This document shows positions 6,709-62,689 of a stretch of DNA of 64,000 nt, one piece after another (positions within the stretch are counted from its first letter, which is position 1; every line of letters begins with the position of its first letter). The notes under the pieces are model-generated. The model was not told the origin of the DNA. It ran no database searches and saw only the letters and a program-made list of their open reading frames with translations. Source of the DNA: Notolepis coatsorum (taxonomy: Eukaryota; Chordata; Actinopteri; Aulopiformes; Paralepididae); contig OZ020592.1 of the NCBI GenBank assembly GCA_963971535.1, forward strand, positions 127,906,166-127,970,165. Direction: 5' to 3'. Made by a program: the position numbers and the translations under genes.

Positions 6709-6908
6709 NNNNNNNNNNNNNNNNNNNNNNNNNNNNNNNNNNNNNNNNNNNNNNNNNNNNNNNNNNNNNNNNNNNNNNNNNNNNNNNNNNNNNNNNNNNN
6801 NNNNNNNNNNNNNNNNNNNNNNNNNNNNNNNNNNNNNNNNNNNNNNNNNNNNNNNNNNNNNNNNNNNNNNNNNNNNNNNNNNNNNNNNNNNNNNNNNNNN
6901 NNNNNNNN
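6709..6908. other. assembly gap, exactly 200 N
   Basis: A run of 200 N. The round length suggests a scaffolding placeholder of unknown true size. It directly follows the CT-rich repeat, a common place for assemblies to break. Confidence 1.
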
Positions 6909-13021: not shown

Positions 13022-13395
13022 CGATAGCGAGTGCCCGGACCACATATGGATGAGCACTACCGGTTCAAAGGTTAATTTCCGGCTGGCGATCTGCCGATCG
13101 GCCACCAGATGGCGCTCTTGAACCGCTAGAAAGTTGAGTGGGGCTTTGCAGTGTGTCTCAGGGCTCCGGAAAGGAAATATGATTTCGATGACAGATTTTT
13201 GAAATATTGACATCAAAGACGAGTTACGGCGTCTTCGGCAGAATGAGCATGGCTAGGAATGACGTGTAAACTCGTCCACGGCGATCATAGTGTTAAGCTC
13301 GGCTCTCAACGGGACCTCAATAATTGGATATGTATCCATTGTGAATTCGTACTCCAGACGCATTACTAACAAGTACACAACAACTTGCATAGATT

Positions 13396-16625: not shown

Positions 16626-16633
16626 CACCGCAC

Positions 16634-33395: not shown

Positions 33396-34535
33396 GTTTC
33401 CACTGAAGCTGCTTTTTCAGTCCAGGACAAAGTTTGGGTCTCAGTCTAGGAAGCCCCGCCCACAAGAGTGGATGCACACCACATGGCTCATGTATTTTAT
33501 TTAGTATTTCTTTAAAAGAAATTTACCAGAAACTGCCCTAATCCTTTTTAGGCGACTGTAACACTGTAAAACTTCTCATAGTCGCGCAGGTGTTTATTTT
33601 CTGGTACAACAATCCCAGAACATAAGGCTGTGATCACATTGGATGCCTTTTCAAAATGTGCCTGCCCCTAATTTCCTATTGTTTTCAATGGTTTTCTCAC
33701 GACAGGCAACAACAAAACCAAACTACGCCTCGCGCTTTTGAAGCTACGCTTTTTCGGGCGGCGCTCTCAGTTGAAAAAGTTTCGACGTCGCCAGGGGGAG
33801 GGATTACAAATCTAAGGTATCTGAAGAGAAATCGACAGCTGTCGATGTTGAAAACGTATCGACAGTCGCCAACATTGGTCAGCATTAGCTATCAATGCTA
33901 AAGTTAGTAATATATTTAACTTATGGAACATTAGCTGAGGTAGCAACGGTATTCAGTGATATCGCTGAAGGAGGCGTCCAATCTGATCACAGCCTAAGAG
34001 GCATGCTGTTATTTGAGACCAGGCATTTTAGAAGTTTTACGGTGTCGGTCACAAACGTCCCTACTTGCCACTTCTCCTCCAAATACACTGTTCCTGGGAA
34101 TTGGTCTTTAACCTTGGCACTTACTGATCCCAGACATGTTTTCTAGTGTGCGTTCACTCCAAGTCTGCTCCTGCTGAGGGTTCTACTGCTGTTTATCACT
34201 CTCGCCATGTTTGTTTCTCGCAGAGAAAACGATTTAATGATTGATTTTCATCTACTGTATTATATTATTATTATTTACTCCTAATAAAATGGATGAAAAT
34301 GTGTGGTTGCTGTTTGGATTTTTGTTAGCTCACACACACAGCCTATATGTATGCATATACTGTAGTTTCAAGTTTCAAGTTTTGTTTTATTTGTCACATA
34401 TAAGGTACATGTACATTATAGTGAAATGCTTGGTTCAGTATGAGCCTCCGGAAACTGTGCTTCAGTAAAAAAAAAGTAAGAGTAAAAGACCAAACACTAT
34501 ACAACATATACAATATACAAAACTAAAATCTACTA

Positions 34536-34763
34536 AATGCAAAACAAAATGCAAAAATGAGGTAGAAGAGGTAGTGTAAATCTTTTGGGAATAAATAGAT
34601 AAAATACGGTGTACTGTAATGTTTAGAAAGTGTTTAAACATTCACCTTTAACATTCACTCCTTAAACACTTTTTAAACATTACAGTACACCATATTTTAT
34701 CTATTTATTCCTAAAACATTTACACTACCTCTTCTACCTAATTTTAGCATTTTGTTTTGCATT
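34536..34763. repeat. 228-bp imperfect hairpin
   Basis: The left arm AATGCAAAACAAAATGC through GTAGAAGAGGTAGTGTAAA mirrors the right arm TTTACACTACCTCTTCTACC through GCATTTTGTTTTGCATT. Arms are about 100 bp with a ~25-bp centre. In copy B the same hairpin is split in its left arm by the hAT at 50777-52450. Confidence 0.88.
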
Positions 34764-35289
34764 GAAAAATTATTTAACCTTTATTTAACCAGGAAGTCCC
34801 ATTGAGATACAATATCTCTTTTGCAAGGGAGACCTGGGACTGCGGTCAAGTGAGCCGTCTTTTGCTTTTGCGTGGTCAAGTGAGCCGCTCTTGTTTTTCG
34901 AGTGCGCGATTAGTTCCAGGTTTACGGTAATGCATTCAAACAACCCTGGGAGGCTGTTGTAATGAACCGACGTGACTTTTGAACACAGTCTCGCAAGTAG
35001 ATCTTACAGAAATACTTAATATGACATTGAATGCGCATCGAATCAATAGGACGTTTAGTCTAATCAATAGGACGTTTCGTATGTGCAGTATTATTGAACA
35101 TCGAATCAATAGGACGCGCAGTATATTCGACCACTAAACAAAAGCTACAGACAATTCCACAGAGGAACACTTCCGGTGAGGATTTCAAAGTAAAGGATGG
35201 CATGTGGTTCATTTCTATTATTTCATAAGTAGTTTATTACACTGCCATGTTTGTACTTAATACTTCTCAAGACTACTTGCACAAATAAT

Positions 35290-38200
35290 ATTAACTACTT
35301 TTACTGTGTACTTTGAGTAATTTGAGTTTCAAAGTCCTTTTTATAGAACAATGAGTATTTTCGACTAACTTTGATGTGGGATAAAAAAAAAGATTTTCCC
35401 ATAAGCACTTTATGAAACTGCCATGGTTGTACTTAGTACCCCTTAGACTACTTGTACAAATTATATGAAATATTTTTACTGTGTACTTTTTGAGTAATTT
35501 CAGTTTTAAAGTCCTCAGAATCAGCATTTTCGACTAACTTTGATGTGGGATAAAAAAAGATTTTCCCATAAGCACCTTATGAAACTGCCATGGTTGTACT
35601 TAGTACCTCTTAGACTACCTGTACAAATTATATGAAATATTTTTACTGTGTACTTTTTGAGTAATTTCAGTTTCAAAGTCCCCAGAATCAGCATTTTCGA
35701 CTAACTTTGATGTGGGATAAAAAAAGATTTTCCCATAAGCACCTTATGAAACTGCCATGGTTGTACTTAGTACCTCTTAGACTACGTGTACAAATTATAT
35801 GAAATATTTTTACTGTGTACTTTTTGAGTAATTTGAGTTTCAAAGTCCCCAGAATCAGCATTTTCTACTAACTTTGATGTGGGATAAAAAAAGATTTTCC
35901 CATAAGCACCTTATGAAACTGCCATGGTTGTACTTAGTACCTCTTAGACTACCTGTACAAATTATATGAAATATTTTTACTGTGTACTTTTTGAGTAATT
36001 TCAGTTTCAAAGTCCCCAGAATCAGCATTTTCGACTAACTTTGATGTGGGATAAAAAAAGATTTTCCCATAAGCACCTTATGAAACTGCCATGGTTGTAC
36101 TTAGTACCTCTTAGACTACTTGTACAAATTATATGAAATATTTTTACTGTGTACTTTTTGAGTAATTTCAGTTTTAAAGTCCCCAGAATCAGCATTTTCG
36201 ACTAACTTTGATGTGGGATAAAAAAAGATTTTCCCATAAGCACCTTATGAAACTGCCATGGTTGTACTTAGTACCTCTTAGACTACTTGTACAAATTATA
36301 TGAAATATTTTTACTGTGTACTTTTTGAGTAATTTCAGTTTTAAAGTCCCCAGAATCAGCATTTTCGACTAACTTTGATGTGGGATAAAAAAAGATTTTC
36401 CCATAAGCACTTGATGAAACTGCCATGGTTGTACTTAGTACCTCTTAGACTACCTGTACAAATTATATGAAATATTTTTACTGTGTACTTTTTGAGTAAT
36501 TTCAGTTTCAAAGTCCCCAGAATCAGCATTTTCGACTAACTTTGATGTGGGATAAAAAAAGATTTTCCCATAAGCACCTTATGAAACTGCCATGGTTGTA
36601 CTTAGTACCTCTTAGACTACGTGTACAAATTATATGAAATATTTTTACTGTGTACTTTTTGAGTAATTTGAGTTTCAAAGTCCCCAGAATCAGCATTTTC
36701 GACTAACTTTGATGTGGGATAAAAAAAGATTTTCCCATAAGCACCTTATGAAACTGCCATGGTTGTACTTAGTACCTCTTAGACTACCTGTACAAATTAT
36801 ATGAAATATTTTTACTGTGTACTTTTTGAGTAATTTCAGTTTCAAAGTCCCCAGAATCAGCATTTTCGACTAACTTTGATGTGGGATAAAAAAAGATTTT
36901 CCCATAAGCACCTTATGAAACTGCCATGGTTGTACTTAGTACCTCTTAGACTACGTGTACAAATTATATGAAATATTTTTACTGTGTACTTTTTGAGTAA
37001 TTTGAGTTTCAAAGTCCCCAGAATCAGCATTTTCTACTAACTTTGATGTGGGATAAAAAAAGATTTTCCCATAAGCACCTTATGAAACTGCCATGGTTGT
37101 ACTTAGTACCTCTTAGACTACCTGTACAAATTATATGAAATATTTTTACTGTGTACTTTTTGAGTAATTTCAGTTTCAAAGTCCCCAGAATCAGCATTTT
37201 CGACTAACTTTGATGTGGGATAAAAAAAGATTTTCCCATAAGCACCTTATGAAACTGCCATGGTTGTACTTAGTACCTCTTAGACTACTTGTACAAATTA
37301 TATGAAATATTTTTACTGTGTACTTTTTGAGTAATTTCAGTTTTAAAGTCCCCAGAATCAGCATTTTCGACTAACTTTGATGTGGGATAAAAAAAGATTT
37401 TCCCATAAGCACCTTATGAAACTGCCATGGTTGTACTTAGTACCTCTTAGACTACTTGTACAAATTATATGAAATATTTTTACTGTGTACTTTTTGAGTA
37501 ATTTCAGTTTTAAAGTCCCCAGAATCAGCATTTTCGACTAACTTTGATGTGGGATAAAAAAAGATTTTCCCATAAGCACTTGATGAAACTGCCATGGTTG
37601 TACTTAGTACCTCTTAGACTACCTGTACAAATTATATGAAATATTTTTACTGTGTACTTTTTGAGTAATTTCAGTTTCAAAGTCCCCAGAATCAGCATTT
37701 TCGACTAACTTTGATGTGGGATAAAAAAAGATTTTCCCATAAGCACCTTATGAAACTGCCATGGTTGTACTTAGTACCTCTTAGACTACGTGTACAAATT
37801 ATATGAAATATTTTTACTGTGTACTTTTTGAGTAATTTGAGTTTCAAAGTCCCCAGAATCAGCATTTTCGACTAACTTTGATGTGGGATAAAAAAAGATT
37901 TTCCCATAAGCACCTTATGAAACTGCCATGGTTGTACTTAGTACCTCTTAGACTACGTGTACAAATTATATGAAATATTTTTACTGTGTACTTTTTGAGT
38001 AATTTGAGTTTCAAAGTCCCCAGAATCAGCATTTTCGACTAACTTTGATGTGGGATAAAAAAAGATTTTCCCATAAGCACCTTATGAAACTGCCATGGTT
38101 GTACTTAGTACCTCTTAGACTACCTGTACAAATTATATGAAATATTTTTACTGTGTACTTTTTGAGTAATTTCAGTTTCAAAGTCCCCAGAATCAGCATT

Positions 38201-40044
38201 TTCGACTAACTTTGATGTGGGATAAAAAAAGATTTTCCCATAAGCACCTGATGAAACTGCCATGGTTGTACTTAGTACCTCTTAGACTACCTGTACAAAT
38301 TATATGAAATATTTTTACTGTGTACTTTTTGAGTAATTTCAGTTTCAAAGTCCCCAGAATCAGCATTTTCGACTAACTTTGATGTGGGATAAAAAAAGAT
38401 TTTCCCATAAGCACCTTATGAAACTGCCATGGTTGTACTTAGTACCTCTTAGACTACCTGTACAAATTATATGAAATATTTTTACTGTGTACTTTTTGAG
38501 TAATTTCAGTTTCAAAGTCCCCAGAATCAGCATTTTCGACTAACTTTGATGTGGGATAAAAAAAAGATTTTCCCATAAGCACCTTATGAAACTGCCATGG
38601 TTGTACTTAGTACCTCTTAGACTACGTGTACAAATTATATGAAATATTTTTACTGTGTACTTTTTGAGTAATTTCAGTTTCAAAGTCCCCAGAATCAGCA
38701 TTTTCGACTAACTTTGATGTGGGATAAAAAAAGATTTTCCCATAAGCACCTTATGAAACTGCCATGGTTGTACTTAGTACCTCTTAGACTACCTGTACAA
38801 ATTATATGAAATATTTTTACTGTGTACTTTTTGAGTAATTTCAGTTTCAAAGTCCCCAGAATCAGCATTTTCGACTAACTTTGATGTGGGATAAAAAAAG
38901 ATTTTCCCATAAGCACCTTATGAAACTGCCATGGTTGTACTTAGTACCTCTTAGACTACCTGTACAAATTATATGAAATATTTTTACTGTGTACTTTTTG
39001 AGTAATTTGAGTTTCAAAGTCCTCAGAATCAGCATTTTCGACTAACTTTGATGTTGGATAAAAACAATTCTTCCCATAAGCACTTTATGAAACTGCCATG
39101 GTTGTACTTAGTACCTCTTAGACTACCTGTACAAATTATATGAAATATTTTTACTGTGTACTTTTTGAGTAATTTCAGTTTCAAAGTCCCCAGAATCAGC
39201 ATTTTCGACTAACTTTGATGTGGGATAAAAAAAGATTTTCCCATAAGCACCTTATGAAACTGCCATGGTTGTACTTAGTACCTCTTAGACTACCTGTACA
39301 AATTATATGAAATATTTTTACTGTGTACTTTTTGAGTAATTTCAGTTTCAAAGTCCCCAGAATCAGCATTTTCGACTAACTTTGATGTGGGATAAAAAAA
39401 GATTTTCCCATAAGCACCTTATGAAACTGCCATGGTTGTACTTAGTACCTCTTAGACTACCTGTACAAATTATATGAAATATTTTTACTGTGTACTTTTT
39501 GAGTAATTTGAGTTTCAAAGTCCTCAGAATCAGCATTTTCGACTAACTTTGATGTTGGATAAAAACAATTCTTCCCATAAGCACTTTATGAAACTGCCAT
39601 GGTTGTACTTAGTACCTCTTAGACTACCTGTACAAATTATATGAAATATTTTTACTGTGTACTTTTTGAGTAATTTCAGTTTCAAAGTCCCCAGAATCAG
39701 CATTTTCGACTAACTTTGATGTGGGATAAAAAAAGATTTTCCCATAAGCACCTTATGAAACTGCCATGGTTGGACTTAGTACCTCTTAGACTACCTGTAC
39801 AAATTATATGAAATATTTTTACTGTGTACTTTTTGAGTAATTTGAGTTTCAAAGTCCCCAGAATCAGCATTTTCGACTAACTTTGATGTGGGATAAAAAA
39901 AGATTTTCCCATAAGCACCTTATGAAACTGCCATGGTTGTACTTAGTACCTCTTAGACTACGTGTACAAATTATATGAAATATTTTTACTGTGTACTTTT
40001 TGAGTAATTTCAGTTTTAAAGTCCTCAGAATCAGCATTTTCGAC
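35290..40044 (+). repeat. 167-bp satellite array, left arm (~28 units)
   Basis: Successive copies of CGACTAACTTTGATGTGGG start 167 bp apart (35531, 35698, 35865, 36032). Units carry CCATGGTTGTACTTAGTACC and TTTTTACTGTGTACTTTTTG. Rare variants recur 1169 bp apart, that is every seven units: TTCTACTAAC at about 35865 and 37034, and CACTTGATG at 36408 and 37577. This shows a higher-order repeat. The first unit, nearest the element end, is the most diverged. Small frames in it are by-products. Confidence 0.97.
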
Positions 40045-40061
40045 ATCCCACATCAAAGTTA

Positions 40062-43000
40062 GTCGAAAATGCTGATTCTGGGGACTTTGAAACTCAAATT
40101 ACTCAAAAAGTACACAGTAAAAATATTTCATATAATTTGTACACGTAGTCTAAGAGGTACTAAGTACAACCATGGCAGTTTCATAAGGTGCTTATGGGAA
40201 AATCTTTTTTTATCCCACATCAAAGTTAGTCGAAAATGCTGATTCTGGGGACTTTGAAACTCAAATTACTCAAAAAGTACACAGTAAAAATATTTCATAT
40301 AATTTGTACAGGTAGTCTAAGAGGTACTAAGTACAACCATGGCAGTTTCATAAGGTGCTTATGGGAAAATCTTTTTTTATCCCACATCAAAGTTAGTCGA
40401 AAATGCTGATTCTGGGGACTTTGAAACTGAAATTACTCAAAAAGTACACAGTAAAAATATTTCATATAATTTGTACAGGTAGTCTAAGAGGTACTAAGTA
40501 CAACCATGGCAGTTTCATAAAGTGCTTATGGGAAGAATTGTTTTTATCCAACATCAAAGTTAGTCGAAAATGCTGATTCTGAGGACTTTGAAACTCAAAT
40601 TACTCAAAAAGTACACAGTAAAAATATTTCATATAATTTGTACAGGTAGTCTAAGAGGTACTAAGTACAACCATGGCAGTTTCATAAGGTGCTTATGGGA
40701 AAATCTTTTTTTATCCCACATCAAAGTTAGTCGAAAATGCTGATTCTGGGGACTTTGAAACTCAAATTACTCAAAAAGTACACAGTAAAAATATTTCATA
40801 TAATTTGTACACGTAGTCTAAGAGGTACTAAGTACAACCATGGCAGTTTCATAAGGTGCTTATGGGAAAATCTTTTTTTATCCCACATCAAAGTTAGTCG
40901 AAAATGCTGATTCTGGGGACTTTGAAACTCAAATTACTCAAAAAGTACACAGTAAAAATATTTCATATAATTTGTACAGGTAGTCTAAGAGGTACTAAGT
41001 CCAACCATGGCAGTTTCATAAGGTGCTTATGGGAAAATCTTTTTTTATCCCACATCAAAGTTAGTCGAAAATGCTGATTCTGGGGACTTTGAAACTGAAA
41101 TTACTCAAAAAGTACACAGTAAAAATATTTCATATAATTTGTACAGGTAGTCTAAGAGGTACTAAGTACAACCATGGCAGTTTCATAAAGTGCTTATGGG
41201 AAGAATTGTTTTTATCCAACATCAAAGTTAGTCGAAAATGCTGATTCTGAGGACTTTGAAACTCAAATTACTCAAAAAGTACACAGTAAAAATATTTCAT
41301 ATAATTTGTACAGGTAGTCTAAGAGGTACTAAGTACAACCATGGCAGTTTCATAAGGTGCTTATGGGAAAATCTTTTTTTATCCCACATCAAAGTTAGTC
41401 GAAAATGCTGATTCTGGGGACTTTGAAACTCAAATTACTCAAAAAGTACACAGTAAAAATATTTCATATAATTTGTACACGTAGTCTAAGAGGTACTAAG
41501 TACAACCATGGCAGTTTCATAAGGTGCTTATGGGAAAATCTTTTTTTATCCCACATCAAAGTTAGTCGAAAATGCTGATTCTGGGGACTTTGAAACTGAA
41601 ATTACTCAAAAAGTACACAGTAAAAATATTTCATATAATTTGTACAGGTAGTCTAAGAGGTACTAAGTACAACCATGGCAGTTTCATAAGGTGCTTATGG
41701 GAAAATCTTTTTTTATCCCACATCAAAGTTAGTCGAAAATGCTGATTCTGGGGACTTTGAAACTCAAATTACTCAAAAAGTACACAGTAAAAATATTTCA
41801 TATAATTTGTACAGGTAGTCTAAGAGGTACTAAGTCCAACCATGGCAGTTTCATAAGGTGCTTATGGGAAAATCTTTTTTTATCCCACATCAAAGTTAGT
41901 CGAAAATGCTGATTCTGGGGACTTTGAAACTGAAATTACTCAAAAAGTACACAGTAAAAATATTTCATATAATTTGTACAGGTAGTCTAAGAGGTACTAA
42001 GTACAACCATGGCAGTTTCATAAAGTGCTTATGGGAAGAATTGTTTTTATCCAACATCAAAGTTAGTCGAAAATGCTGATTCTGAGGACTTTGAAACTCA
42101 AATTACTCAAAAAGTACACAGTAAAAATATTTCATATAATTTGTACAGGTAGTCTAAGAGGTACTAAGTACAACCATGGCAGTTTCATAAAGTGCTTATG
42201 GGAAGAATTGTTTTTATCCAACATCAAAGTTAGTCGAAAATGCTGATTCTGAGGACTTTGAAACTCAAATTACTCAAAAAGTACACAGTAAAAATATTTC
42301 ATATAATTTGTACAGGTAGTCTAAGAGGTACTAAGTACAACCATGGCAGTTTCATAAGGTGCTTATGGGAAAATCTTTTTTTATCCCACATCAAAGTTAG
42401 TCGAAAATGCTGATTCTGGGGACTTTGAAACTCAAATTACTCAAAAAGTACACAGTAAAAATATTTCATATAATTTGTACACGTAGTCTAAGAGGTACTA
42501 AGTACAACCATGGCAGTTTCATAAGGTGCTTATGGGAAAATCTTTTTTTATCCCACATCAAAGTTAGTCGAAAATGCTGATTCTGGGGACTTTGAAACTG
42601 AAATTACTCAAAAAGTACACAGTAAAAATATTTCATATAATTTGTACAGGTAGTCTAAGAGGTACTAAGTACAACCATGGCAGTTTCATAAGGTGCTTAT
42701 GGGAAAATCTTTTTTTATCCCACATCAAAGTTAGTCGAAAATGCTGATTCTGGGGACTTTGAAACTCAAATTACTCAAAAAGTACACAGTAAAAATATTT
42801 CATATAATTTGTACACGTAGTCTAAGAGGTACTAAGTACAACCATGGCAGTTTCATAAGGTGCTTATGGGAAAATCTTTTTTTATCCCACATCAAAGTTA
42901 GTCGAAAATGCTGATTCTGGGGACTTTGAAACTGAAATTACTCAAAAAGTACACAGTAAAAATATTTCATATAATTTGTACAGGTAGTCTAAGAGGTACT

Positions 43001-45790
43001 AAGTACAACCATGGCAGTTTCATAAGGTGCTTATGGGAAAATCTTTTTTTATCCCACATCAAAGTTAGTCGAAAATGCTGATTCTGGGGACTTTGAAACT
43101 CAAATTACTCAAAAAGTACACAGTAAAAATATTTCATATAATTTGTACACGTAGTCTAAGAGGTACTAAGTACAACCATGGCAGTTTCATAAGGTGCTTA
43201 TGGGAAAATCTTTTTTTATCCCACATCAAAGTTAGTCGAAAATGCTGATTCTGGGGACTTTGAAACTGAAATTACTCAAAAAGTACACAGTAAAAATATT
43301 TCATATAATTTGTACAGGTAGTCTAAGAGGTACTAAGTACAACCATGGCAGTTTCATAAGGTGCTTATGGGAAAATCTTTTTTTATCCCACATCAAAGTT
43401 AGTCGAAAATGCTGATTCTGGGGACTTTGAAACTGAAATTACTCAAAAAGTACACAGTAAAAATATTTCATATAATTTGTACAGGTAGTCTAAGAGGTAC
43501 TAAGTACAACCATGGCAGTTTCATAAAGTGCTTATGGGAAGAATTGTTTTTATCCAACATCAAAGTTAGTCGAAAATGCTGATTCTGAGGACTTTGAAAC
43601 TCAAATTACTCAAAAAGTACACAGTAAAAATATTTCATATAATTTGTACAGGTAGTCTAAGAGGTACTAAGTACAACCATGGCAGTTTCATAAAGTGCTT
43701 ATGGGAAGAATTGTTTTTATCCAACATCAAAGTTAGTCGAAAATGCTGATTCTGAGGACTTTGAAACTCAAATTACTCAAAAAGTACACAGTAAAAATAT
43801 TTCATATAATTTGTACAGGTAGTCTAAGAGGTACTAAGTACAACCATGGCAGTTTCATAAGGTGCTTATGGGAAAATCTTTTTTTATCCCACATCAAAGT
43901 TAGTCGAAAATGCTGATTCTGGGGACTTTGAAACTCAAATTACTCAAAAAGTACACAGTAAAAATATTTCATATAATTTGTACACGTAGTCTAAGAGGTA
44001 CTAAGTACAACCATGGCAGTTTCATAAGGTGCTTATGGGAAAATCTTTTTTTATCCCACATCAAAGTTAGTCGAAAATGCTGATTCTGGGGACTTTGAAA
44101 CTCAAATTACTCAAAAAGTACACAGTAAAAATATTTCATATAATTTGTACAGGTAGTCTAAGAGGTACTAAGTACAACCATGGCAGTTTCATAAGGTGCT
44201 TATGGGAAAATCTTTTTTTATCCCACATCAAAGTTAGTCGAAAATGCTGATTCTGGGGACTTTGAAACTCAAATTACTCAAAAAGTACACAGTAAAAATA
44301 TTTCATATAATTTGTACACGTAGTCTAAGAGGTACTAAGTACAACCATGGCAGTTTCATAAGGTGCTTATGGGAAAATCTTTTTTTATCCCACATCAAAG
44401 TTAGTCGAAAATGCTGATTCTGGGGACTTTGAAACTGAAATTACTCAAAAAGTACACAGTAAAAATATTTCATATAATTTGTACAGGTAGTCTAAGAGGT
44501 ACTAAGTACAACCATGGCAGTTTCATAAGGTGCTTATGGGAAAATCTTTTTTTATCCCACATCAAAGTTAGTCGAAAATGCTGATTCTGGGGACTTTGAA
44601 ACTCAAATTACTCAAAAAGTACACAGTAAAAATATTTCATATAATTTGTACACGTAGTCTAAGAGGTACTAAGTACAACCATGGCAGTTTCATAAGGTGC
44701 TTATGGGAAAATCTTTTTTTATCCCACATCAAAGTTAGTCGAAAATGCTGATTCTGGGGACTTTGAAACTGAAATTACTCAAAAAGTACACAGTAAAAAT
44801 ATTTCATATAATTTGTACAGGTAGTCTAAGAGGTACTAAGTACAACCATGGCAGTTTCATAAGGTGCTTATGGGAAAATCTTTTTTTATCCCACATCAAA
44901 GTTAGTCGAAAATGCTGATTCTGGGGACTTTGAAACTGAAATTACTCAAAAAGTACACAGTAAAAATATTTCATATAATTTGTACAGGTAGTCTAAGAGG
45001 TACTAAGTACAACCATGGCAGTTTCATAAAGTGCTTATGGGAAGAATTGTTTTTATCCAACATCAAAGTTAGTCGAAAATGCTGATTCTGAGGACTTTGA
45101 AACTCAAATTACTCAAAAAGTACACAGTAAAAATATTTCATATAATTTGTACAGGTAGTCTAAGAGGTACTAAGTACAACCATGGCAGTTTCATAAGGTG
45201 CTTATGGGAAAATCTTTTTTTATCCCACATCAAAGTTAGTCGAAAATGCTGATTCTGGGGACTTTGAAACTGAAATTACTCAAAAAGTACACAGTAAAAA
45301 TATTTCATATAATTTGTACAGGTAGTCTAAGAGGTACTAAGTACAACCATGGCAGTTTCATAAAATGCTTATGGGAAGAATTGTTTTTATCCAACATCAA
45401 AGTTAGTCGAAAATGCTGATTCTGAGGACTTTAAAACTGAAATTACTCAAAAAGTACACAGTAAAAATATTTCATATAATTTGTACAAGTAGTCTAAGAG
45501 GTACTAAGTACAACCATGGAAGTTTCATAAAGTGCTTATGGGAAAATCTTTTTTTATACCACATCAAAGTTAGTCGAAAATGCTGATTCTGAGGACTTTG
45601 AAACTCAAATTACTCAAAAAGTACACAGTAAAAATATTTCATATAATTTGTACAAGTAGTCTAAGAGGTACTAAGTACAACCATGGCAGTTTCATAAAGT
45701 GCTTATGGGAAAATCTTTTTTTATCCCACATCAAAGTTAGTCGAAAATACTCATTGTTCTATAAAAAGGACTTTGAAACTCAAATTACTC
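40062..45790 (-). repeat. 167-bp satellite array, right arm (~34 units, inverted)
   Basis: The same satellite in inverse orientation, beginning after a 19-bp hairpin stem (40026-40044 with 40062-40080) and a 17-bp loop. The variant GAAGAATTG lies at 40532, 42035, 43538 and 45041, exactly 1503 bp or nine units apart. A second set at 42202 and 43705 has the same spacing. The right arm is about 1 kb longer than the left and its higher-order period differs, so the two arms have evolved separately. Confidence 0.97.
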
Positions 45791-47314
45791 AAAGTACACA
45801 GTAAAAGTAGTTAATATTATTTGTGCAAGTAGTCTTGAGAAGTATTAAGTACAAACATGGCAGTGTAATAAACTACTTATGAAATAATAGAAATGAACCA
45901 CATGCCATCCTTTACTTTGAAATCCTCACCGGAAGTGTTCCTCTGTGGAATTGTCTGTAGCTTTAGTTTAGTGATCGAATATACTGCGCGTCCTATTGAT
46001 TCGATGTTCAATAATACTGCACATACGAAACGTCCTATTGATTAGACTAAACGTCCTATTGATTCGATGCGCATTCAATGTCATATTAAGTATTTCTGTA
46101 AGATCTACTTGTGAGACTGTGTTCAAAAGTCACGTCGGTTCATTACAACAGCGTCCCAGGCTTGTTTTAATGCATTACCGTAAACCTGGAACTAATCGCG
46201 CACTCGAAAAACAAGAGCGGCTCACTTGACCACGCAAAAGCAAAAGACGGCTCACTTGACCGCAGTGACCTGGGCCCTCATGCATCAACGTGGACTTTGA
46301 ACTTGACCTACTTCCACACGTAAGCACGGAATGTAGAACTAGCGTACGCACAGGGAAGTCGGCATTCATCACACGTGCGTACGCAGGCTCTATGGTCCTC
46401 CGTGTTGATGAATACCACTTTGTTCTACCGTCAATGCTCGTGCATGATTATCCATATATGGTCATGAAAATGAGGAAACACCCCCCATGGGATGTGAAAT
46501 AATGGACCGACCCGAGCGGGACTCCGAGAAACTCCACGGAGAATTCACTGCTGTCGAACCAAGAAGACACTATCGCGTATTATGATTTATGGGATAAATA
46601 AAAGGCGGACTTGTAAACGGTGATGTCAGATATCAACGGCTCCCTAAAACCATTGCTGCAATTCTGCCTGGACAGCTCAAAATACTAATAAAGACCGTTC
46701 GTTGACCACTGTTTGGCGCTGGTTGTGTGTCATTATAACCGTGCTGTATGAATGCCTTTATTAGTTGTGTTCGATTGGCTATATGATTTTTAGAGGCATC
46801 TATTTTGTTGTCGGCTAATAAAGACCGCGCTGGAATATGACTGCCTTTTCCCGTGTTGTTTGATTAATACCCACGGATTAAAGTTCTCCTCAATTCTATT
46901 CCAAATCGCGATGGATCTCCCGTCAATTTTCTACCTGCTGCATATGATTTCTAGAGGCATACTACAATCTATTTTGATGTCAGTATTGGGTAGCCTATAT
47001 AAACAATATAATACGAGAGCATAGAACAATGAATCTCACTGCATGTATGATGTATCCTGCCTTTCAATACATGAACTTGAATCCCATCATATAGTCTGTC
47101 CACTATCTGCATGGTGTCATTGCAATGCGTTTTCTATTCTTTCTTGTACAGTAAAAAGGGGGAAGAACACTATATTCATATGACTTATTCTGCTTACAGC
47201 TTCGAAATTCCACTTGTTTCGTTTAACGTAAAGCCTTTTAAATATAATCAAAACGTTCCCGTGTTTCGGCGGTCTGTGCGCAAAATAATAACGAGTTGAG
47301 CTTTATGATTTATG

Positions 47315-47458
47315 ATGAATTGAAAATGGGGGACCCTGATGTAAACAAGACGAAAGTTGGTCTGCATCCCCAATTAACAATTGTATGTACTGAGCTGTAC
47401 TGTACTGTACCCATTCTGCAATCTGTTAATAAACTTTTCAATCAATCAATCAATCAAG
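47315..47458 (+). mobile_element. Rex1-like LINE tail (copy 4 of 9)
   Basis: AAAATGGGGGACCCTGATGT through CAATCTGTTAATAAAC, ending in (AATC)n. It lies inside the Harbinger-like element, 65 bp from an inverted copy. Confidence 0.88.
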
Positions 47459-47522
47459 CTACGCGGAGCGCAGTCAGTCAGTAGCCTACACCCCGTATAT
47501 TCCGATAACGCTATATAAACCA

Positions 47523-47690
47523 TGAATGAATGAATGAATGAAAACTTTATTAACAGATTGCAGAATGGGTACAGTACAGTACAGCTCAATACATACAATT
47601 GTTAAGGGGATGCAGACCAGAGAAAGACTTTCGTCTTGTTTATATCAGGGTCCCCCATTTTCAATTCATCGTAACATATATGACATGCTG
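47523..47690 (-). mobile_element. Rex1-like LINE tail (copy 5 of 9)
   Basis: (GAAT)n then AAAACTTTATTAACAGATTG through GGTCCCCCATTTTCAATTCA, the reverse complement of the shared 3' end. It lies inside the same TIR element. Confidence 0.88.
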
Positions 47691-48041
47691 CATTCATTCT
47701 GAGAGAAAGATCTATTATTCCAAATGCTATTTATAGGGTTTTGACCATAATTACACTACTGTTGCTATCTTACAATGAACTATAATGAACTACGGTTCAT
47801 ACAGAACATCCAGTGTTATTATGCACAGAAGCTCATTTCCTTGTTGTAATAATATATTCTACCACTGGGAGCTAGGTACGCCAGGTCTGAAATGTGCGTA
47901 GATGTACGCACGAAGTCAAGTTCAAATCGAAATTGATGAATCCCACTCTTTGCTTAGAAATGATCGTACGCACGGGTTACGCACAGATCTGTGCGTAGAA
48001 CACGTTGATGCATGAGGGCCCAGGGCAAGATGACAGCAATA

Positions 48042-48850
48042 ACATTTCAATCAATCAATCAAATCCTTTATTTAACCAGATAAGCATCATTGAGATTAAA
48101 ATCTCTTTTTCAAGAGCGATCTGGCCAAGCAAGGCAGCAGAAAGTTTCAACATAAAAAAGAACATCACAATAAAATACAGATAAAACATTCACAGCAAGC
48201 TCCAATTTCAGGCAAGTTATCAAACAGGCAAATGATCAAACACAGTTGCACTGTCCGAGGGAACTGAGTTCGTAGAATTTTAAAATGGCTTTGAATTCTC
48301 CGAGGGTGACCAGTCCTGGTAATTTTAGGTCCTCCTGTATCTTGTTCCAGGATGAAGGAGCAGCATATTTAAAAGCCCTTTTTAAAAGCCCTTTTTCCCA
48401 ATTCAGTTCTCATATGGGGAACGTCCAGTGTTAGAGCAGCTTGAGAATGAAGGGCATACTTATATTGCTTCGTGCACAGAAGCACACTTAGGTACGAGGG
48501 AACCAGTTTAAGCAGAGCTTTGTGCACAAGAGAGCCATCGAGAAAATCGGCGTATTTGTAGAGATGGGTAACTTGCAATGGTATACAGGGTGCAATGGTG
48601 CACTCGATTTCCACATCCCGTGACAAAGCGTAAGACAGAATGGTACACAGTATCAAGCTTTCTAAGGTACTGATCAGGTGCATACATGTTGAGTAAGTCA
48701 CCATAATCGAGTAGCGGTAAGAAGGTGGACGAGATCAGGTGACTTCTCACTTTAAGTGAAAAACAGGACCTGTTTCTGAAAAAGAAGCTGAGTTTAAGCT
48801 TCAGCTTTGACACAAGTTTGTCTATGTGAGATTTAAACGTAAGGTTTTTG
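48042..48850 (-). mobile_element. L2-like LINE 3' fragment, copy A
   Basis: Two overlapping minus-strand frames (48813-48508 and 48704-48369) carry FRNRSCFSLKVRSHLISSTF, LPLLDYGDLLNMYAPDQYL and LDVPHMRTELGKRAFKKGF. This is the C-terminal part of the reverse transcriptase ORF of a common fish L2/Jockey-type LINE. A frameshift near 48600 separates the two halves. The 3' UTR includes AGAGATTTTAATCTCAATGA and ends in (TTGA)n at about 48042-48058. It is 5'-truncated and inactive. Confidence 0.88.
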
Positions 48851-49309
48851 CAATATATCAGACAGCAATAATACAGTAAAAGTGCATGTATACAATATAC
48901 AATACATCACATGTACACACAAAAACAACACAGAATAGTCTACATTTTAGTTTTGTATATTGTATATGTTTGGTCTTTATTCTTTTTACTTTTTTCACTG
49001 TATGAAGCACAATCTCAGGTGCATAGTAGTATAGACATATTAGCATGATGGGTAGTATAAGTATAGTATAGTAGCATGGTAGTAGTAAGGTACATAGAAG
49101 TAAAATACTGAACATTTTAAATAAAAACATATGTGGTATGTACAGGCCATCAGGATGCTCAATGTGGACTGTAACATTAGCTCATCCATTCTACATTCAC
49201 TGCACACAACATCCACATTCACCTTTAAAGGCCAACTTGCAGGTTGTATTTTTGTTCAATAAACAATGTTTCCACTGAAGCTGCTTTTTCAGTCCAGGAC
49301 ATATTTATG

Positions 49310-49655
49310 GATGAAGGATTGCACTACAACTCGTACACCTTACTGTAAATTGTACCTAAAATTGTACCTCATCCCATTTCTGCTTTGCACTAGATAGTAC
49401 TGTACATTAGTAGACTGCATAGTATTGTGTATTGTATATTATATGGTAACTCAGAACATTGTACATATGTCTATACCGAACACTGTGACCTCATTTTTCT
49501 TCCTCTAAATTCATGCTATATTATGTTATTATGTTATTTGATACTATCTTGTCTAGCACAGTCTCTGGAGCGTAACAGTAAGAAGCATTTTGTATGAAAG
49601 TATTCTGTACTTCTGTATGACAACTATTAAAGAACTTGAACTTGAACTTGAACTT
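49310..49655 (+). mobile_element. LINE 3' tail ending in (AACTTG)n, copy B only
   Basis: Non-coding sequence ending CTATTAAAGAACTTGAACTTG, as a short hexamer array, replaces about 55 bp present in copy A (33430-33484). A hexamer-repeat end suggests an L2/CR1-type tail. Absence from A makes this an insertion with a small deletion in B, or a loss in A. Confidence 0.6.
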
Positions 49656-51284
49656 GGCTCATGTATTTTATTTAGTATTTCTTTAAAAGAAATTTACCAG
49701 AAACTGCCCTAATCCTTTTTAGGCGACTGTAACACTGTAAAACTTCTCATAGTCGCGCAGGTGTTTATTTTCTGGTACAACAATCCCCTTGGCAACCATA
49801 AGGCTGTGATCACATTGGATGCCTTTTCAAAATGTGCCTGCCCCTAATTTCCTATTGTTTTCAATGGTTTTCTCACGACAGGCAACAACAAAACCAAACT
49901 ACGCCTCGCGCTTTTGAAGCTACACTTTTTCGGGCGGCGCTCTCAGTTGAAAAAGTTTCGACGTCGCCAGGGGGAGGGATTACAAATCTAAGGTATCTGA
50001 AGAGAAATCGACAGCTGTCGATGTTGAAAACGTATCGACAGTCGCCAACATTGGTCAGCATTAGCAATCAATGCTAAAGTTAGTAATATATTTAACTTAT
50101 GGAACATTAGCTGAGGTAGCAACGGTATTCAGTGATATCGCTGAAGGAGGCGTCCAATCTGATCACAGCCTAAGAGGCATGCTGTTATTTGAGACCAGGC
50201 ATTTTAGAAGTTTTACGGTGTCGGTCACAAACGTCCCTACTTGCCACTTCTCCTCCAAATACACTGTTCCTGGGAATTGGTCTTTAACCTTGGCACTTAC
50301 TGATCCCAGACATGTTTTCTAGTGTGCGTTCACTCCAAGTCTGCTCCTGCTGAGGGTTCTACTGCTGTTTATCACTCTCGCCATGTTTGTTTCTCGCAGA
50401 GAAAACGATTTAATGATTGATTTTCATCTACTGTATTATATTATTATTATTATTTACTCCTAATAAAATGGATGAAAATGTGTGGTTGCTGTTTGGATTT
50501 TTGTTAGCTCACACACACAGCCTATATGTATGCATATACTGTAGTTTCAAGTTTCAAGTTTTGTTTTATTTGTCACATATAAGGTACATGTACATTATAG
50601 TGAAATGCTTGGTTCAGTATGAGCCTCCGGAAACTGTGCTTCAGTAAAAAAAAAAGTAAGAGTAAAAGACCAAACACTATACAACATATACAATATACAA
50701 AACTAAAATCTACTAAATGCAAAACAAAATGCAAAAATGAGGTAGAAGAGGTAGTGTAAATCTTTTGGGAATAAATTAGAGCTGGGCCGTTAACGGCGTT
50801 AACGTGCTGCGTTATCGCGAGACTAGTATCGCGCGATAATATAATTGACGCCGTTAATCTTTTTCGCAATGTTGGGTCTGTATTGTCCTTAAATACTTGC
50901 CGTAGTTCCCAGCTGTGGTACCAGGAAGTGATTGCACTACCGGAGCTGTAGTCAGAATAATGTGTTAAACTAAAGTAGTGGTCCGGTAATCATTGTTATA
51001 CAGGTGAGGTTAAGAAGTCCTCAGGATATAACACAATTCGGCGATGAGGACGTCTGAATCTGCGCAATGCAAGAAAAAAGAAGTCCGTTGCAAGCTTTGT
51101 TTACATTATTAACGACGCGAGTTAGCATGTTAGCTCACGTTGGATACGGGCGGCACTGGGAAACATCTACAAGAGGAGGAAATCCACTTTACACACTAAA
51201 GGAAGGATCGACTGGACTATCGTGAGTGTTTACAACAGAAATGGCTTGGGTTATTGTAAATATTGGACCGTTTGATGACAATGT

Positions 51285-52300: not shown

Positions 52301-52716
52301 TGGTCATTATTTGGGTAGAACACACCTATTTTGAACACCTTCGGCAGACATATTTTTTTTGAGCCATTTTAATCTAGATTAATCTAGATTAATTCCAGGA
52401 TTGCAGGTAGATTAATCTATATTAAAAAAATTAATCTATGCCCAGCTCTAGAATAAATAGATAAAATACGGTGTACTGTAATGTTTAGAAAGTGTTTAAA
52501 CATTCACCTTTAACATTCACTCCTTAAACACTTTTTAAACATTACAGTACACCATATTTTATCTATTTATTCCTAAAACATTTACACTACCTCTTCTACC
52601 TTTTAGCATTTTGTTTTGCATTGAAAAATTATTTAACCTTTATTTAACCAGGAAGTCCCATTGAGATACAATATCTCTTTTGCAAGGGAGACCTGGGCAA
52701 GATGACAGCAATAACA

Positions 52717-53507
52717 TTTCAATCAATCAATCAAATCCTTTATTTAACCAGATAAGCATCATTGAGATTAAAATCTCTTTTTCAAGAGCGATCTGGCCAA
52801 GCAAGGCAGCAGAAAGTTTCAACATAAAAAAGAACATCACAATAAAATACAGATAAAACATTCACAGCAAGCTCCAATTTCAGGCAAGTTATCAAACAGG
52901 CAAATGATCAAACACAGTTGCACTGTCCGAGGGAACTGAGTTCGTAGAATTTTAAAATGGCTTTGAATTCTCCGAGGGTGACCAGTCCTGGTTCCAGGAT
53001 GAAGGAGCAGCATATTTAAAAGCCCTTTTTAAAAGCCCTTTTTCCCAATTCAGTTCTCATATGGGGAACGTCCAGTGTTAGAGCAGCTTGAGAACGAAGG
53101 GCATACTTATATTGCTTCGTGCACAGAAGCACACTTAGGTACGAGGGAACCAGTTTAAGCAGAGCTTTGTGCACAAGAGAGCCATCGAGAAAATCGGCGT
53201 ATTTGTAGAGATGGGTAACTTGCAATGGTATACAGGGTGCAATGGTGCACTCGATTTCCACATCCCGTGACAAAGCGTAAGGCAGAATGGTACACAGTAT
53301 CAAGCTTTCTAAGGTACTGATCAGGTGCATACATGTTGAGTAAGTCACCATAATCGAGTAGCGGTAAGAAGGTGGACGAGATCAGGTGACTTCTCACTTT
53401 AAGTGAAAAACAGGACCTGTTTCTGAAAAAGAAGCTGAGTTTAAGCTTCAGCTTTGACACAAGTTTGTCTATGTGAGATTTAAACGTAAGGTTTTTGCAA
53501 TATATCA
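52717..53507 (-). mobile_element. L2-like LINE 3' fragment, copy B
   Basis: The duplicate of the fragment at 48042-48850, with the same two frames (53460-53155 and 53351-53016) and frameshift. It lacks about 25 bp after GACCAGTCCTGGT that copy A retains, and differs at a few bases. Confidence 0.88.
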
Positions 53508-54375
53508 GACAGCAATAATACAGTAAAAGTGCATGTATACAATATACAATACATCACATGTAAACACAAAAACAACACAGAATAGTCTACATTTTAGTTT
53601 TGTATATTGTATATGTTTGGTCTTTATTCTTTTTACTTTTTTCACTGTATGAAGCACAATCTCAGGTGCATAGTAGTATAGACATATTAGCATGATGGGT
53701 AGTATAAGTATAGTATAGTAGCATGGTAGTAGTAAGGTACATAGAAGTAAAATACTGAACATTTTAAATAAAAACATATGTGGTATGTACAGGCCATCAG
53801 GATGCTCAATGTGGACTGTAACATTAGCTCATCCATTCTACATTCACTGCACACAACATCCACATTCACCTTTAAAGGCCAACTTGCAGGTTGTATTTTT
53901 GTTCAATAAACAATGTGGACTAGGCCAACGGTGACTTTCATGAAGAAGGGGAAAAAAATTATTGAAATTGACCCAGTTTTAGCGTTTTTATCAAACATTT
54001 TGTCTGCCCAACACAATCACCACGCACGTGGATATTTTAATCAATGGTTCATAACGTGCACGTGTAATCGAAATGCTGACGTCACGTGAGGTGCAGGGCA
54101 GCGAGGGGCTCTGAGAGTCACACACAGCTAGTGGCAGGCAAAGAGCCTTGCTACTACTAGCCGAGGAGTAATGAATGAAAATGTATCTGTTTCACGGTCA
54201 CCTAACAACACTATTGCTCCGTGATCATAGCATCCATCTCTAAAGCTAACCACTATTTGTAAAAGCCACAACCACGTTACCATATTTGTAATAATGAAAA
54301 TCATTGTGTCGTTGTACATAGTGTATACACCGTTAGAAGCTAGCTAAGTTAGCTAACGTAGCTTAGATTAGCAGC

Positions 54376-58652: not shown

Positions 58653-58769
58653 ATGAAAAATCCTGATTTCATCAGTGAGTTGTAAACTATGGACACGTAT
58701 AGTTAGCTCATGCTAACTCATGCTAACGGACGCACAAGGCAATTTCGTCAGTCAATGAACTGAGTTGAG

Positions 58770-60248
58770 ATGATGACGGCCCATGGAAGTAACGTTGACG
58801 GGGAAATGACCAACTATAAAGAGCAAGTGATCAACTACTCTAACCCATTCATGTTAACCCCCACAACTACAACCATGTACTCTCAGTCTGATGTCGCTAA
58901 CCTGAGACGTGAAATTGAGTACCAACATGGACAAAGCCTCAACCCGTTCATAACAGAGGGTCAGCTGCCCCCTACTGGTGCAATGTCAAACCCATTTACT
59001 GCACGTAATAAGCCATTGATAATGGCCAGTGACAATTACCCACATGCTCATCTGTCGTTGTCAAGCACAAACCCCTTTGCTCATATGAATGATCAAAGTA
59101 TGAGAGACAGTGGCATTGAAATGCAGCAAAGTCATTATGGAACTGAGCCTCCCCATATGAATATGTTGTATGGACAAATGCACTCAATGACCATAGGAGA
59201 TGCAGCTACCCATAACATTAACCCCTGCATTGCTGCTAAACCAGCAGCCTTTATGGAGAGCACACCTATGAACAATGTGACAGTCTATTCCCCACATATT
59301 GAACCTGCAACCCTGCTTTCCACCCCTGTGACACCGGGTGTGTGTTCCCGTCAGGTGCAGCCAGAGGGCGCTGTACACCACAGGCAGAGTACACCGGTCC
59401 ATGGAGGTAATGAAGCTGTGACTTATGGCTATGATCAGTCCCATCGCAGGCGAGCAGGCTTTCATCCACGTGGCCAGCTGCCCCGGCGTGTGCAGTACAA
59501 CCTGTCTTCAGACAGCGAGGACGACAGTGTTCAGCGAGAGAGGATTCCTACACTACGACCGGGTCAGTATGATGGCACCACACCATGGAAGGACTTCTTG
59601 CAGCGCTTTGAGAGCTGTGCTGAGGCTAATCGCTGGTCAGAGAACACTATGGCTGTCCAGTTGAGGTTCTGTCTCATAGGTGCAGCAGGAGCAGTGGTCC
59701 ACCGCAACCCAAGGTCAGCACGATGGGACTACAGAGACATTGTTGAGGAGGTGGAGGTTGCTTATGGCCCATCATCAGAGTATGCAGTGGCTGTTGCCAT
59801 CGAGTTAAGGCAACAAATCCGCCTGCCAGGTGAGGCACTACACATCTTGAGGGACGACATATATGAGAAAGTGTCTATTGCATACGCTGACCGTTCTGAA
59901 AAGGAGCAGGATGCAATCAGTGTTGAGGTGTTCACTAATGCTATGGGGGACGCCAACATTATTCAGAAGCTCCTAGAAGACCGACCTCGCACATTAGCCC
60001 AAGCTTACGACATTGCTCGTCGTTATGAAACTACCAGGAGAGCAGCTACCAGCGTTGCACAGCTCATGCAGACTGGAGCACGGAATGTAGCTGAGCGGAG
60101 AACCAGAATGGCTATGGTGCGCGATTATGCCCACTCTGATGAAGCTGAGGGAAATAATGGTGCAGCACCAGCACCCACAAAGCAGAACCAGAACCACCCC
60201 GCGCAATACAAACAAAGGAGACAAAAAGATACAAATTGGGATAGATAA
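58770..60248 (+). CDS. Ty3/Gypsy Gag-like ORF, C-terminus cut off by an insertion
   Basis: The ATG at 58770 opens 492 codons. The first ~250 residues are Asn/Thr/Ser/Pro-rich and low in structure, with a repeated NPF motif (SNPFMLTP, LNPFITEG, TNPFAHMN). Residues about 258-440 form a retrotransposon gag (capsid) domain: LRPGQYDGTTPWKDFLQRFE, NTMAVQLRFCLIGAAGAVV and ARWDYRDIVEEVEVAYG. A basic, Gln-rich linker precedes the stop. The stop is supplied by (GATAA)n repeats belonging to a minus-strand insertion; the zinc knuckle reappears at 61712 beyond it. Gag forms the particle that packages the element RNA. The frame is otherwise open, so the element was probably young when interrupted. Confidence 0.85.
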   Translation: MMTAHGSNVDGEMTNYKEQVINYSNPFMLTPTTTTMYSQSDVANLRREIEYQHGQSLNPFITEGQLPPTGAMSNPFTARNKPLIMASDNYPHAHLSLSSTNPFAHMNDQSMRDSGIEMQQSHYGTEPPHMNMLYGQMHSMTIGDAATHNINPCIAAKPAAFMESTPMNNVTVYSPHIEPATLLSTPVTPGVCSRQVQPEGAVHHRQSTPVHGGNEAVTYGYDQSHRRRAGFHPRGQLPRRVQYNLSSDSEDDSVQRERIPTLRPGQYDGTTPWKDFLQRFESCAEANRWSENTMAVQLRFCLIGAAGAVVHRNPRSARWDYRDIVEEVEVAYGPSSEYAVAVAIELRQQIRLPGEALHILRDDIYEKVSIAYADRSEKEQDAISVEVFTNAMGDANIIQKLLEDRPRTLAQAYDIARRYETTRRAATSVAQLMQTGARNVAERRTRMAMVRDYAHSDEAEGNNGAAPAPTKQNQNHPAQYKQRRQKDTNWDR

Positions 60249-61690: not shown

Positions 61691-61693
61691 TGG

Positions 61694-62689
61694 GAGTGGA
61701 TCTGCATCTGCTGTCACAACTGCTCGGGTATTGGACACATGTGGCGTAATTGCCACTCTCTAACAAACCCAACTAAGCTGCAGGCGGACACAGTTTTGAA
61801 TGTCTCCAAAAACCAAAATGCACGCAGAGGGTCCAGTGGTAAAGGTGAAAGCCCAGAAATGTGTATCCACCTGCTGATGTATGACATGGAGATTTGTGCC
61901 ATCTTAGACTCTGGGGCAGGGAGAAATGTGCTGCCTTTGCGATACTATAATTATATCCACCCGGAGGTCAGACCACCTATCCAGCCATCAACTGTACAGT
62001 CCCTGCATGGCATTGGTCCTGGGAATGTCCCTGCCTTGGGTGAAGCTCACTTACCTGTTCAGATTGGCAGCCAGACTGTGGGTGTAGATTTCATACTTGC
62101 CGACCTGCCAGGCAGTGCTGAGGCCATCCTGGGCCATCCATTCTTAGAGCAGTCAAGAGCACATCTGGACTTTGGCAACCGAAAGATTGTGTTGTTCGGT
62201 GAACAAATACCATACTTCCATCCGGACAACAGGCCGAGAGCACATGCAGTAAGAGTAGCTCGCACCACAGTGCTAGCACCAGGACGTGAGTACATTATAC
62301 CGGGAAATGCTCATTTCCGGACCCCTGTGAAAGGAGAGGTGATGCTATGCCCTACAAAAGGCTTTGTTGAGAAGCACCGATTGCTGGTGGCCCGGGTCTT
62401 AGTAGGAGCCCAGCCCAGTAAGAGTATACCAATCAGAGTATTTAACCCAGGAACCACTGATGTTACCATCAAGAAAGGAGCTGTAGCAGGGTTTCTCCAG
62501 TCTGTTGAGATAATGGAGCCCCCTACCATCATCACTGAATCCCAACAGTCCGACCGTGCCTTCCCCACCGTGCCAGAACATCTCACCACTCTGTACGCCC
62601 AGAGTTCCATTGAGCTAACTACCGGGGAAAAGTGCAGTCTAGCGAAGCTCCTGCAAGACTACGGCGACATCTTCTCTACAGGACCCTAA
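61694..62689 (+). pseudogene. Ty3/Gypsy zinc knuckle and aspartic protease, truncated pol
   Basis: A CCHC knuckle from 61712 (CHNCSGIGHMWRNC) is followed by a linker and an aspartic protease. The catalytic motif LDSGAGRNVLP lies at about residues 56-66 counted from the Met at 61739. A flap-like LHGIG and ILADLPGSAEAILGHPFLEQ follow, matching the conserved ILG of retropepsins. The protease cuts the Gag-Pol precursor. A pre-RT linker follows, ending LAKLLQDYGDIFSTGP, where RT normally begins. A stop at 62687-62689 comes directly after, and no RT is seen in the remaining 1.3 kb. Pol is therefore cut off at the protease/RT boundary. Confidence 0.88.

What the first reader, a model, noticed from the sequence alone, without database searches (positions are those of the whole stretch)
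34839..46266. An 11.4-kb foldback element whose arms are higher-order satellite DNA, with an exact TSD and an empty allele nearby
Seen: terminal inverted repeats ACTGCGGTCAAGTGAGCCG, flanking 8-bp repeats GACCTGGG, and the unoccupied GACCTGGG in duplication copy B at 52690. So the whole palindrome behaves as one inserted mobile unit, yet its content is about 62 units of a 167-bp satellite and no gene. Known: foldback elements can seed satellites (for example Tetris in Drosophila virilis). Inference: this may be a vehicle that disperses satellite arrays, possibly mobilised by a hAT- or Zisupton-type transposase. I know of no description of such an element in fish.
Basis: partly seen in the sequence, partly recalled or inferred. 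Interest (0 to 1): 0.92.

Follow-up and report, generated by a model that had tools for sequence, protein, structure and literature searches.

The report
Satellite-carrying foldback transposon family in fish
The window holds one recent copy of a DNA transposon whose two arms are long arrays of a 167-bp satellite in mirror image; related copies are scattered through this large genome, and they look like cut-down versions of a parent element that carried a transposase-like gene.

Summary
In detail: exact 19-bp ends, exact 8-bp target duplication GACCTGGG, about 63 satellite units in two inverted arms, and an empty site in copy B. Corrections: a second 1.74-kb insertion abuts the right target duplication, and "higher-order" structure is not supported.

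The end occurs 325 times exactly. Of 29 end pairs checked, 20 have 7-8 of 8 matching target bases (1 of 756 mispaired controls). Of 22 genome copies read in full, 19 carry inverted satellite arrays, about 1.9-31 kb. Central joins differ in 16 of 16 copies.

Long copies keep a core joined to the satellite at one fixed point. Exons of a gene with an IS256-like DDE fold, Ulp1 protease and PHD finger lie beside core at nine loci, three between exact ends. Best reading: satellite foldbacks are internal-deletion derivatives of that element, closed by end joining. An apparent excess of microhomology at the joins failed a like-for-like control.

A kin-like element is in print (Atlantic cod gadMor-hAT-1784, called a hAT MITE), so this is a new variant of a known kind.

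The parts
34831..34838 (+). left target-site duplication GACCTGGG
34839..35233 (+). left END, alpha version (395 bp): terminal motif ACTGCGGTCAAGTGAGCCG; GGTCAAGTGAGCCG at 34844-34857 and again at 34874-34887
   Evidence: 8 other ends fetched from the genome are 100% identical to it
35234..40044 (+). left arm, 28.7 units of the 167-bp satellite
40044..40045 (.). central junction: unit phase 125 meets phase 142 in inverse orientation, no overlap and no filler; different from the 15 other junctions compared
40045..45871 (-). right arm, 34.9 inverted units of the same satellite
45872..46266 (-). right END, beta version (6 substitutions from alpha)
46267..46274 (+). right target-site duplication GACCTGGG
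46275..48018 (.). second, unrelated inverted-repeat insertion (1744 bp; 18-bp ends) abutting the target duplication; absent from copy B
52690..52697 (+). single GACCTGGG in duplication copy B: the empty site
33481..34838 (+). copy A, left flank (98.7-98.8% to copy B pieces 49652-50776 and 52451-52697)
48023..49269 (+). copy A, right flank (97.4% to copy B 52681-53916)

Best explanation
The window element is a non-autonomous foldback DNA transposon of a genome-wide family. Its parent has the order END (395 bp) - satellite array - transposase-like gene - core - inverted satellite array - END and makes 8-bp target duplications. Satellite foldbacks arise when the middle is lost: after excision or breakage, repair copies inward from each end and the two unfinished satellite strands are joined by end joining, leaving a mirror-image satellite element with a new centre, which the gene product can still move in trans by its ends. 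Shown: the family, target duplications, fixed satellite-core boundary, gene between ends, and a different centre in each copy compared. Inferred: gap repair as the cause, the joining pathway, mobilisation in trans, and that this gene is the mobilising transposase.
Against: None of the three gene copies bounded by exact ends on both sides has 7 or more of 8 matching target bases (C17 6, C8 4, C6 5); the copy with gene exons and a perfect duplication (E37449) showed N-terminal exons only. Gene copies read or scored have frame breaks or stops; no intact one was shown. The junctions show no excess of microhomology when the null is measured the same way (mean overlap 4.75 against 4.30, P 0.37); the excess came from an unequal null. 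Five of 18 young copies have two beta ends, and E72320 has core on both arms, so deletion of one parent alone is not enough. Beyond about 8 units from the END, arrays in register are no more alike than arrays shifted by one unit, and alpha and beta arrays do not differ. 9 of 29 pairs lack a clear duplication. The best fold match has E 2.2e-3, and none reached 1e-3.
Confidence: 0.72

Rival explanations
1. Small foldback elements inserted first and the satellite arrays then expanded in place, so transposition dispersed single units rather than arrays.
For: Arms range from about 2 to 86 units, arms of one copy differ in length, and arrays are not collinear beyond about 8 units. Tandem repeats in Galileo arms vary this way (PMC3573991, passages read).
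Against: All 12 young alpha/beta copies have satellite next to both ENDs (10 read in full, 2 by their ends only, window); an identical 334-bp dimer occurs in places on several contigs; the three core-bearing copies have 22-40 units on each side.
Confidence: 0.2
2. It is a hAT MITE, as the Atlantic cod kin-like element was annotated.
Confidence: 0.2
3. A host (for example centromeric) 167-bp satellite was captured by the transposon rather than grown inside it.
For: The unit has the length of a nucleosome repeat, common in host satellites (general knowledge); it shows no similarity to END 1-340 beyond shuffled units.
Against: Of 17 satellite clusters among the listed best matches, 16 lie within about 20 kb of an exact end; the seventeenth (C45) could not be checked. 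Only 40 of 575 candidate stretches were scored and the list was cut.
Confidence: 0.25
4. Assembly artefact: fold-back reads make false palindromes.
For: The C43 gene palindrome has identical match scores on both sides and could be one.
Against: The window arms differ at 106 bases and by 6 units; many independent loci, most with their own target duplication and each with its own junction.
Confidence: 0.03

Closest known systems
gadMor-hAT-1784 / gadMor-hAT-8043, Atlantic cod (PMC12368964; section 8 and passages read)
   Same: Inverted arms made of 167-169-bp tandem repeats; no ORF in the consensus; internal part lost; fish
   Different: Arms about 600 bp, copies 1.3-5.8 kb, studied at inversion breakpoints; called a hAT MITE; no hit for target site or TSD in the main text; letters not compared here
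Tetris, Drosophila virilis (PMC4079207; passages read)
   Same: Non-autonomous foldback with internal about 220-bp tandem repeats that also form satellite-like arrays; 8-10 bp duplications
   Different: Three structurally complete copies, no transposase copy found; here 325 exact ends, tens of units per arm and gene-bearing long copies
Drosophila FB and FB-NOF foldback (recalled; NOF seen here as a protein name)
   Same: Foldback arms of tandem repeats; a relative of the gene found here is named '120.7 kDa protein in NOF-FB transposable element'
   Different: 9-bp duplications and short arm repeats (recalled)
Tm1 of root-knot nematodes (PMC3169594; passages read)
   Same: Foldback-like arms with tandem motifs, asymmetric ends, Mutator-type transposase in one group, gene-less groups
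   Different: About 14-bp motif repeats, mostly 9-bp duplications
Galileo (PMC3573991; passages read)
   Same: Long arms with tandem repeats of variable number; '2TIR' copies as deletion derivatives of transposase copies
   Different: P superfamily; up to three internal repeats, arms up to about 1.25 kb
Cg_HINE Helentrons of oyster (PMC7492417; abstract read)
   Same: A transposon that carries and spreads satellite-like arrays
   Different: Helentron; arrays central, not foldback arms

Membership tests
Foldback DNA transposon (structural group) | Long inverted repeats make up most of the element | tested here: met
   Window arms 5.2 and 6.2 kb of 11.4 kb; inverted arrays in 19 of 22 genome copies read in full
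Foldback DNA transposon (structural group) | Inverted arms contain tandem repeats | tested here: met
   167-bp arrays
Foldback DNA transposon (structural group) | Fixed-length target-site duplication | tested here: met
   8 bp, 20 of 29 pairs at 7-8 of 8; control 1 of 756
Foldback DNA transposon (structural group) | Moves by a transposase acting on the ends | not testable with these tools
   Needs an excision assay
IS256/Mutator-like (NOF-FB group) | DDE transposase of IS256/MULE type between the ends | tested here: inconclusive
IS256/Mutator-like (NOF-FB group) | Target duplication of 8-11 bp (range recalled) | tested here: met
   8 bp
hAT | 8-bp duplications with nTnnnnAn preference (pattern recalled) | tested here: not met
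   Length fits; pattern does not
hAT | hAT transposase domains | tested here: inconclusive
Zisupton / KDZ | 8-bp duplications | tested here: met
   Zisupton 8 bp in PMC12730594 (passages read)
Zisupton / KDZ | KDZ transposase | tested here: inconclusive
   No KDZ model or among the 25 of 49 Pfam families shown
gadMor-hAT-1784 family | Arms of 167-169-bp tandem repeats | tested here: met
   PMC12368964
gadMor-hAT-1784 family | Sequence identity of the unit | not testable with these tools
   Cod consensus not held; supplements not readable
Classical satellite DNA | Large free arrays outside transposons | tested here: inconclusive
   16 of 17 listed clusters near an exact end; 40 of 575 candidates scored

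The most novel reading that the evidence does not exclude
A live mobile satellite system: a transposon that carries nucleosome-length satellite arrays as mirror-image arms of up to tens of units, re-forms the centre of each copy by end joining, and so scatters new long palindromes through the chromosomes, where they could seed satellites and inversions (as proposed for the cod relative).
Probability: 0.35. Interest if true: 0.8.

Novelty: new variant of a known kind. Interest (0 to 1): 0.6.

Why it matters
How satellites spread and homogenise between chromosomes is an old question. Here the carrier, an empty site, a probable parent gene and a series of younger and older copies sit in one genome, so dispersal of arrays by transposition can be tested directly. 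The many different centres record how cells repair long palindromes. The result also suggests that the hAT label of the cod inversion-breakpoint element deserves a new look.

Tried and rejected
Withdrawn: excess microhomology at the central joins. One search compared overlaps found by alignment with a stricter exact-match null (4.75 against 0.78); with the null measured the same way there is no excess (4.75 against 4.30, P 0.37 for the mean, 0.27 for the median; without the two long overlaps of 15 and 17 bp, 2.5 against 2.52).

Rejected: the hAT target pattern. Ordered inheritance of the arrays by inward truncation: in register is no better than shifted beyond about 8 units (the top rows had looked favourable). 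Higher-order repeats in the window. A transposase-site motif inside the satellite: none at up to 4 substitutions. E37449 centre as a plain single host gene: one 566-bp piece has 3 near-identical full copies, with partial ones on C8, C23 and C9, but the two other full copies (both on C6) have no exact end nearby, so capture of part of it stays possible. Pfam on its exon pieces gave only weak matches, the best PHD at E 0.005 (none at 0.1). The two transposase domains listed for relative P0002 (PF21788, PF13359) lie at 954-1139, beyond the part that aligns with the family (1-688), so they belong to something fused to it. Of the 5 of 325 ends followed by a base other than T, two go on as END, one shares 52 bp and has other tandem repeats, two are the bare 19 bp. 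Viral contigs: no exact match to the end or to a 23-bp satellite word. The PDB sequence search gave nothing useful. PADLOC, PHROGs, NCBIfam and Rfam were not used.

Not done: the list of ends preceded by G did not complete and the C list showed 100 of 118, so 109 ends (91 preceded by G by subtraction, 18 by C) are placed only if they are among the first 100. A genome search with the whole END was tried three times without an answer and not repeated. The 57.6-kb end pair on C1 was not tested for a target duplication. The species was not determined.

Full report
WHAT IS IN THE WINDOW. The ends ACTGCGGTCAAGTGAGCCG lie at 34839 (+) and 46248-46266 (-), GACCTGGG flanks both and stands once, unoccupied, at 52690. 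Between a 395-bp END on each side lie 28.7 and 34.9 copies of a 167-bp unit in opposite orientation. The arms are 97.9% identical over 5.2 kb, with 106 substitutions, and the right one is six units longer. Copy A and copy B are a tandem duplication, 97.4-98.8% alike in the shared pieces. The site is more complex than described: directly after the right target duplication comes a second inverted-repeat insertion (46275-48018), and copy A resumes at about 48023. Copy B lacks both. Unit order shows no significant higher-order period.

THE FAMILY. The window lies in a held, unnamed 3.42-Gb genome. The 19-bp end has 159 + 166 exact matches, the reversed control none. Among the first 100 listed places, 29 neighbouring pairs within 60 kb point towards each other, none point apart and 3 are on the same strand; median length 9.8 kb. 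I checked flanks for 28 of those 29 pairs plus the window: 16 have identical 8-bp flanks and 4 have 7 of 8, so 20 of 29. Pairing each left flank with the wrong right flank gives 1 of 756 at 7 or more (this control holds the 28 pairs). The pair left out is the 57.6-kb one on C1. Of those 28 genome copies, 22 were read end to end and 6 by their ends only. Of the 22, 19 carry satellite arrays in both orientations; the exceptions are L010, L012 and the 172-bp L019. Arms range from about 2 to 86 units. Eight fetched ENDs are 100% identical to the window's left END, which points to recent movement.

TWO ENDS. ENDs come in two versions, alpha and beta. Of 28 elements aligned (27 from the genome and the window), I judged by eye that 18 belong to a young group: 12 have one alpha and one beta end, 5 have two beta, 1 has beta plus a recombinant, none has two alpha; the other 10 are older or damaged. 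This fits descent from one parent with distinguishable ends plus some exchange between arms. The arrays themselves do not differ by end type: over the first eight units the same type is 97.6% alike, different types 97.4%, and the two arms of one copy 97.7%.

THE CENTRES. In the 16 copies whose two arrays meet directly or across a filler of up to 32 bp, all 16 junctions are different; the other four of the 20 copies with both arrays were left out because a core or insert of 1 kb or more lies between the arrays (L017, E37449, E11808, E72320). Twelve have no filler and four have fillers of 1, 5, 22 and 32 bp. The 32-bp filler in L016 equals the first 32 bases of the core found in long copies, which marks it as a deletion derivative. 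Overlaps at the other joins average 4.75 bp. A first null suggested excess microhomology, but with the null measured by the same alignment there is none (4.30 expected, P 0.37). So the joins show end joining without favouring a pathway.

THE CORE AND THE GENE. Three long copies keep a core joined to the satellite at exactly the same base, on four arms. A piece of the core matches 27 times and a deeper piece 23 times in the genome. The core begins with what looks like a worn L1 fragment (by eye, no call). In E37449 the middle carries exons homologous to an icefish protein, and in E11808 the deep core codes for the C-terminal PHD exon of the same protein family. That family (74 proteins including the query, from 7,993 scored candidates; the 69 with a name all show a fish, two of them also a ferret) has an Ulp1 protease domain and a PHD finger (each in 14 of 31 members scanned at E up to 1, best 3e-9 and 8e-9), and one member bears the name '120.7 kDa protein in NOF-FB transposable element'. 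Searching the genome with that member gives 67 exon matches in 16 places; 9 of the 16 lie next to deep core, in the same order and orientation. Three of these lie between exact ends on both sides: C17:195792-211805 (16.0 kb), C8 (10.5 kb) and C6 (12.6 kb). None of these three has a target duplication of 7 or more of 8 (6, 4 and 5). C43 shows two such genes tail to tail with identical match scores, which may be a real giant palindrome or an assembly error.

HOW IT PROBABLY WORKS. Shown: dispersed insertions with 8-bp duplications, common ends, a gene-bearing long form, and satellite foldbacks with their own centres. Inferred: cut-and-paste movement in trans; after excision the gap is refilled from both sides, stops within the satellite or core, and is closed by end joining. 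Template switching at stalled forks, proposed for Drosophila FB4 copies that pick up genes (PMC8277862, passages read), is an alternative route to the same joins. Against a pure deletion model, E72320 has core on both arms and five young copies have two beta ends, so exchange between arms also occurs. Beyond eight units from the END, arrays are as alike shifted as in register, so they also turn over in place.

WHERE THE SATELLITE IS. The listed best dimer matches form 17 clusters; 16 lie within about 20 kb of an exact end and one (C45) could not be checked. Only 40 of 575 candidate stretches were scored and the list was cut, so free arrays are not excluded.

PRIOR WORK. Atlantic cod gadMor-hAT-1784 has arms of 167-169-bp tandem repeats, about 600 bp long, no ORF, and lies at inversion breakpoints (PMC12368964, section 8 and passages read; a term search for target site and TSD found none; the finding is cited in an Arctic codfish paper, PMC13011446, passages read). 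The unit length is the same; letters were not compared. Tetris, Tm1 and Galileo (passages read) are foldback systems with tandem-repeat arms; oyster Cg_HINE elements carry satellite-like arrays (abstract read). My nine paper searches listed no description of a gene-bearing parent for such a fish element; most subscription papers are not in that library.

VERDICT. A real, recent and large foldback family with satellite arms: a new variant of a known kind. The parent gene and the series of different centres make it unusually testable.

Noticed in passing
46275-48018: A second insertion with 18-bp inverted ends (CCCTCATGCATCAACGTG) abuts the foldback's right target duplication; an inner repeat of about 150 bp recurs in the window and in several fetched loci.
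   Followed up: partly
34536-34763: Imperfect palindrome (88.6% over 228 bp) just left of the insertion; part of it is also in copy B at 52451-52572.
   Followed up: no
G000:C43:57942926-57983818: Two transposase-like genes tail to tail around about 57963370 with identical match scores on both sides: giant palindrome or assembly error; an exact end lies at 58001597.
   Followed up: partly
L069:201-440: Same 19-bp end followed by tandem repeats containing GGTCAGACCAGCCG: a possible related family with other arm repeats.
   Followed up: no
L071:201-420: An isolated exact end directly upstream of an ATG-led open stretch (by eye): a transposon remnant possibly in a gene's 5' region.
   Followed up: no
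L049:6187-7746: In E37449 the N-terminal coding part carries about 19 copies of an 81-bp (27-aa) repeat; a Betta relative (P0005) has different coding tandem repeats in its N-terminal part.
   Followed up: partly
   Followed up: no
391-5275: 4.9-kb array of a 9-bp unit ACCAGAGGG (552 copies), ending about 1.4 kb before an assembly gap (6709-6908).
   Followed up: no
13393-17814 and 58764-62686: Open stretches that look like a LINE (13393-17814) and a gag/protease-bearing retroelement (58764-62686), judged by eye.
   Followed up: no
G000:C13:82681756-82685176: Four evenly spaced copies, about 1.1 kb apart, of a fragment matching P0004 residues 602-652 at 55-57%.
   Followed up: no
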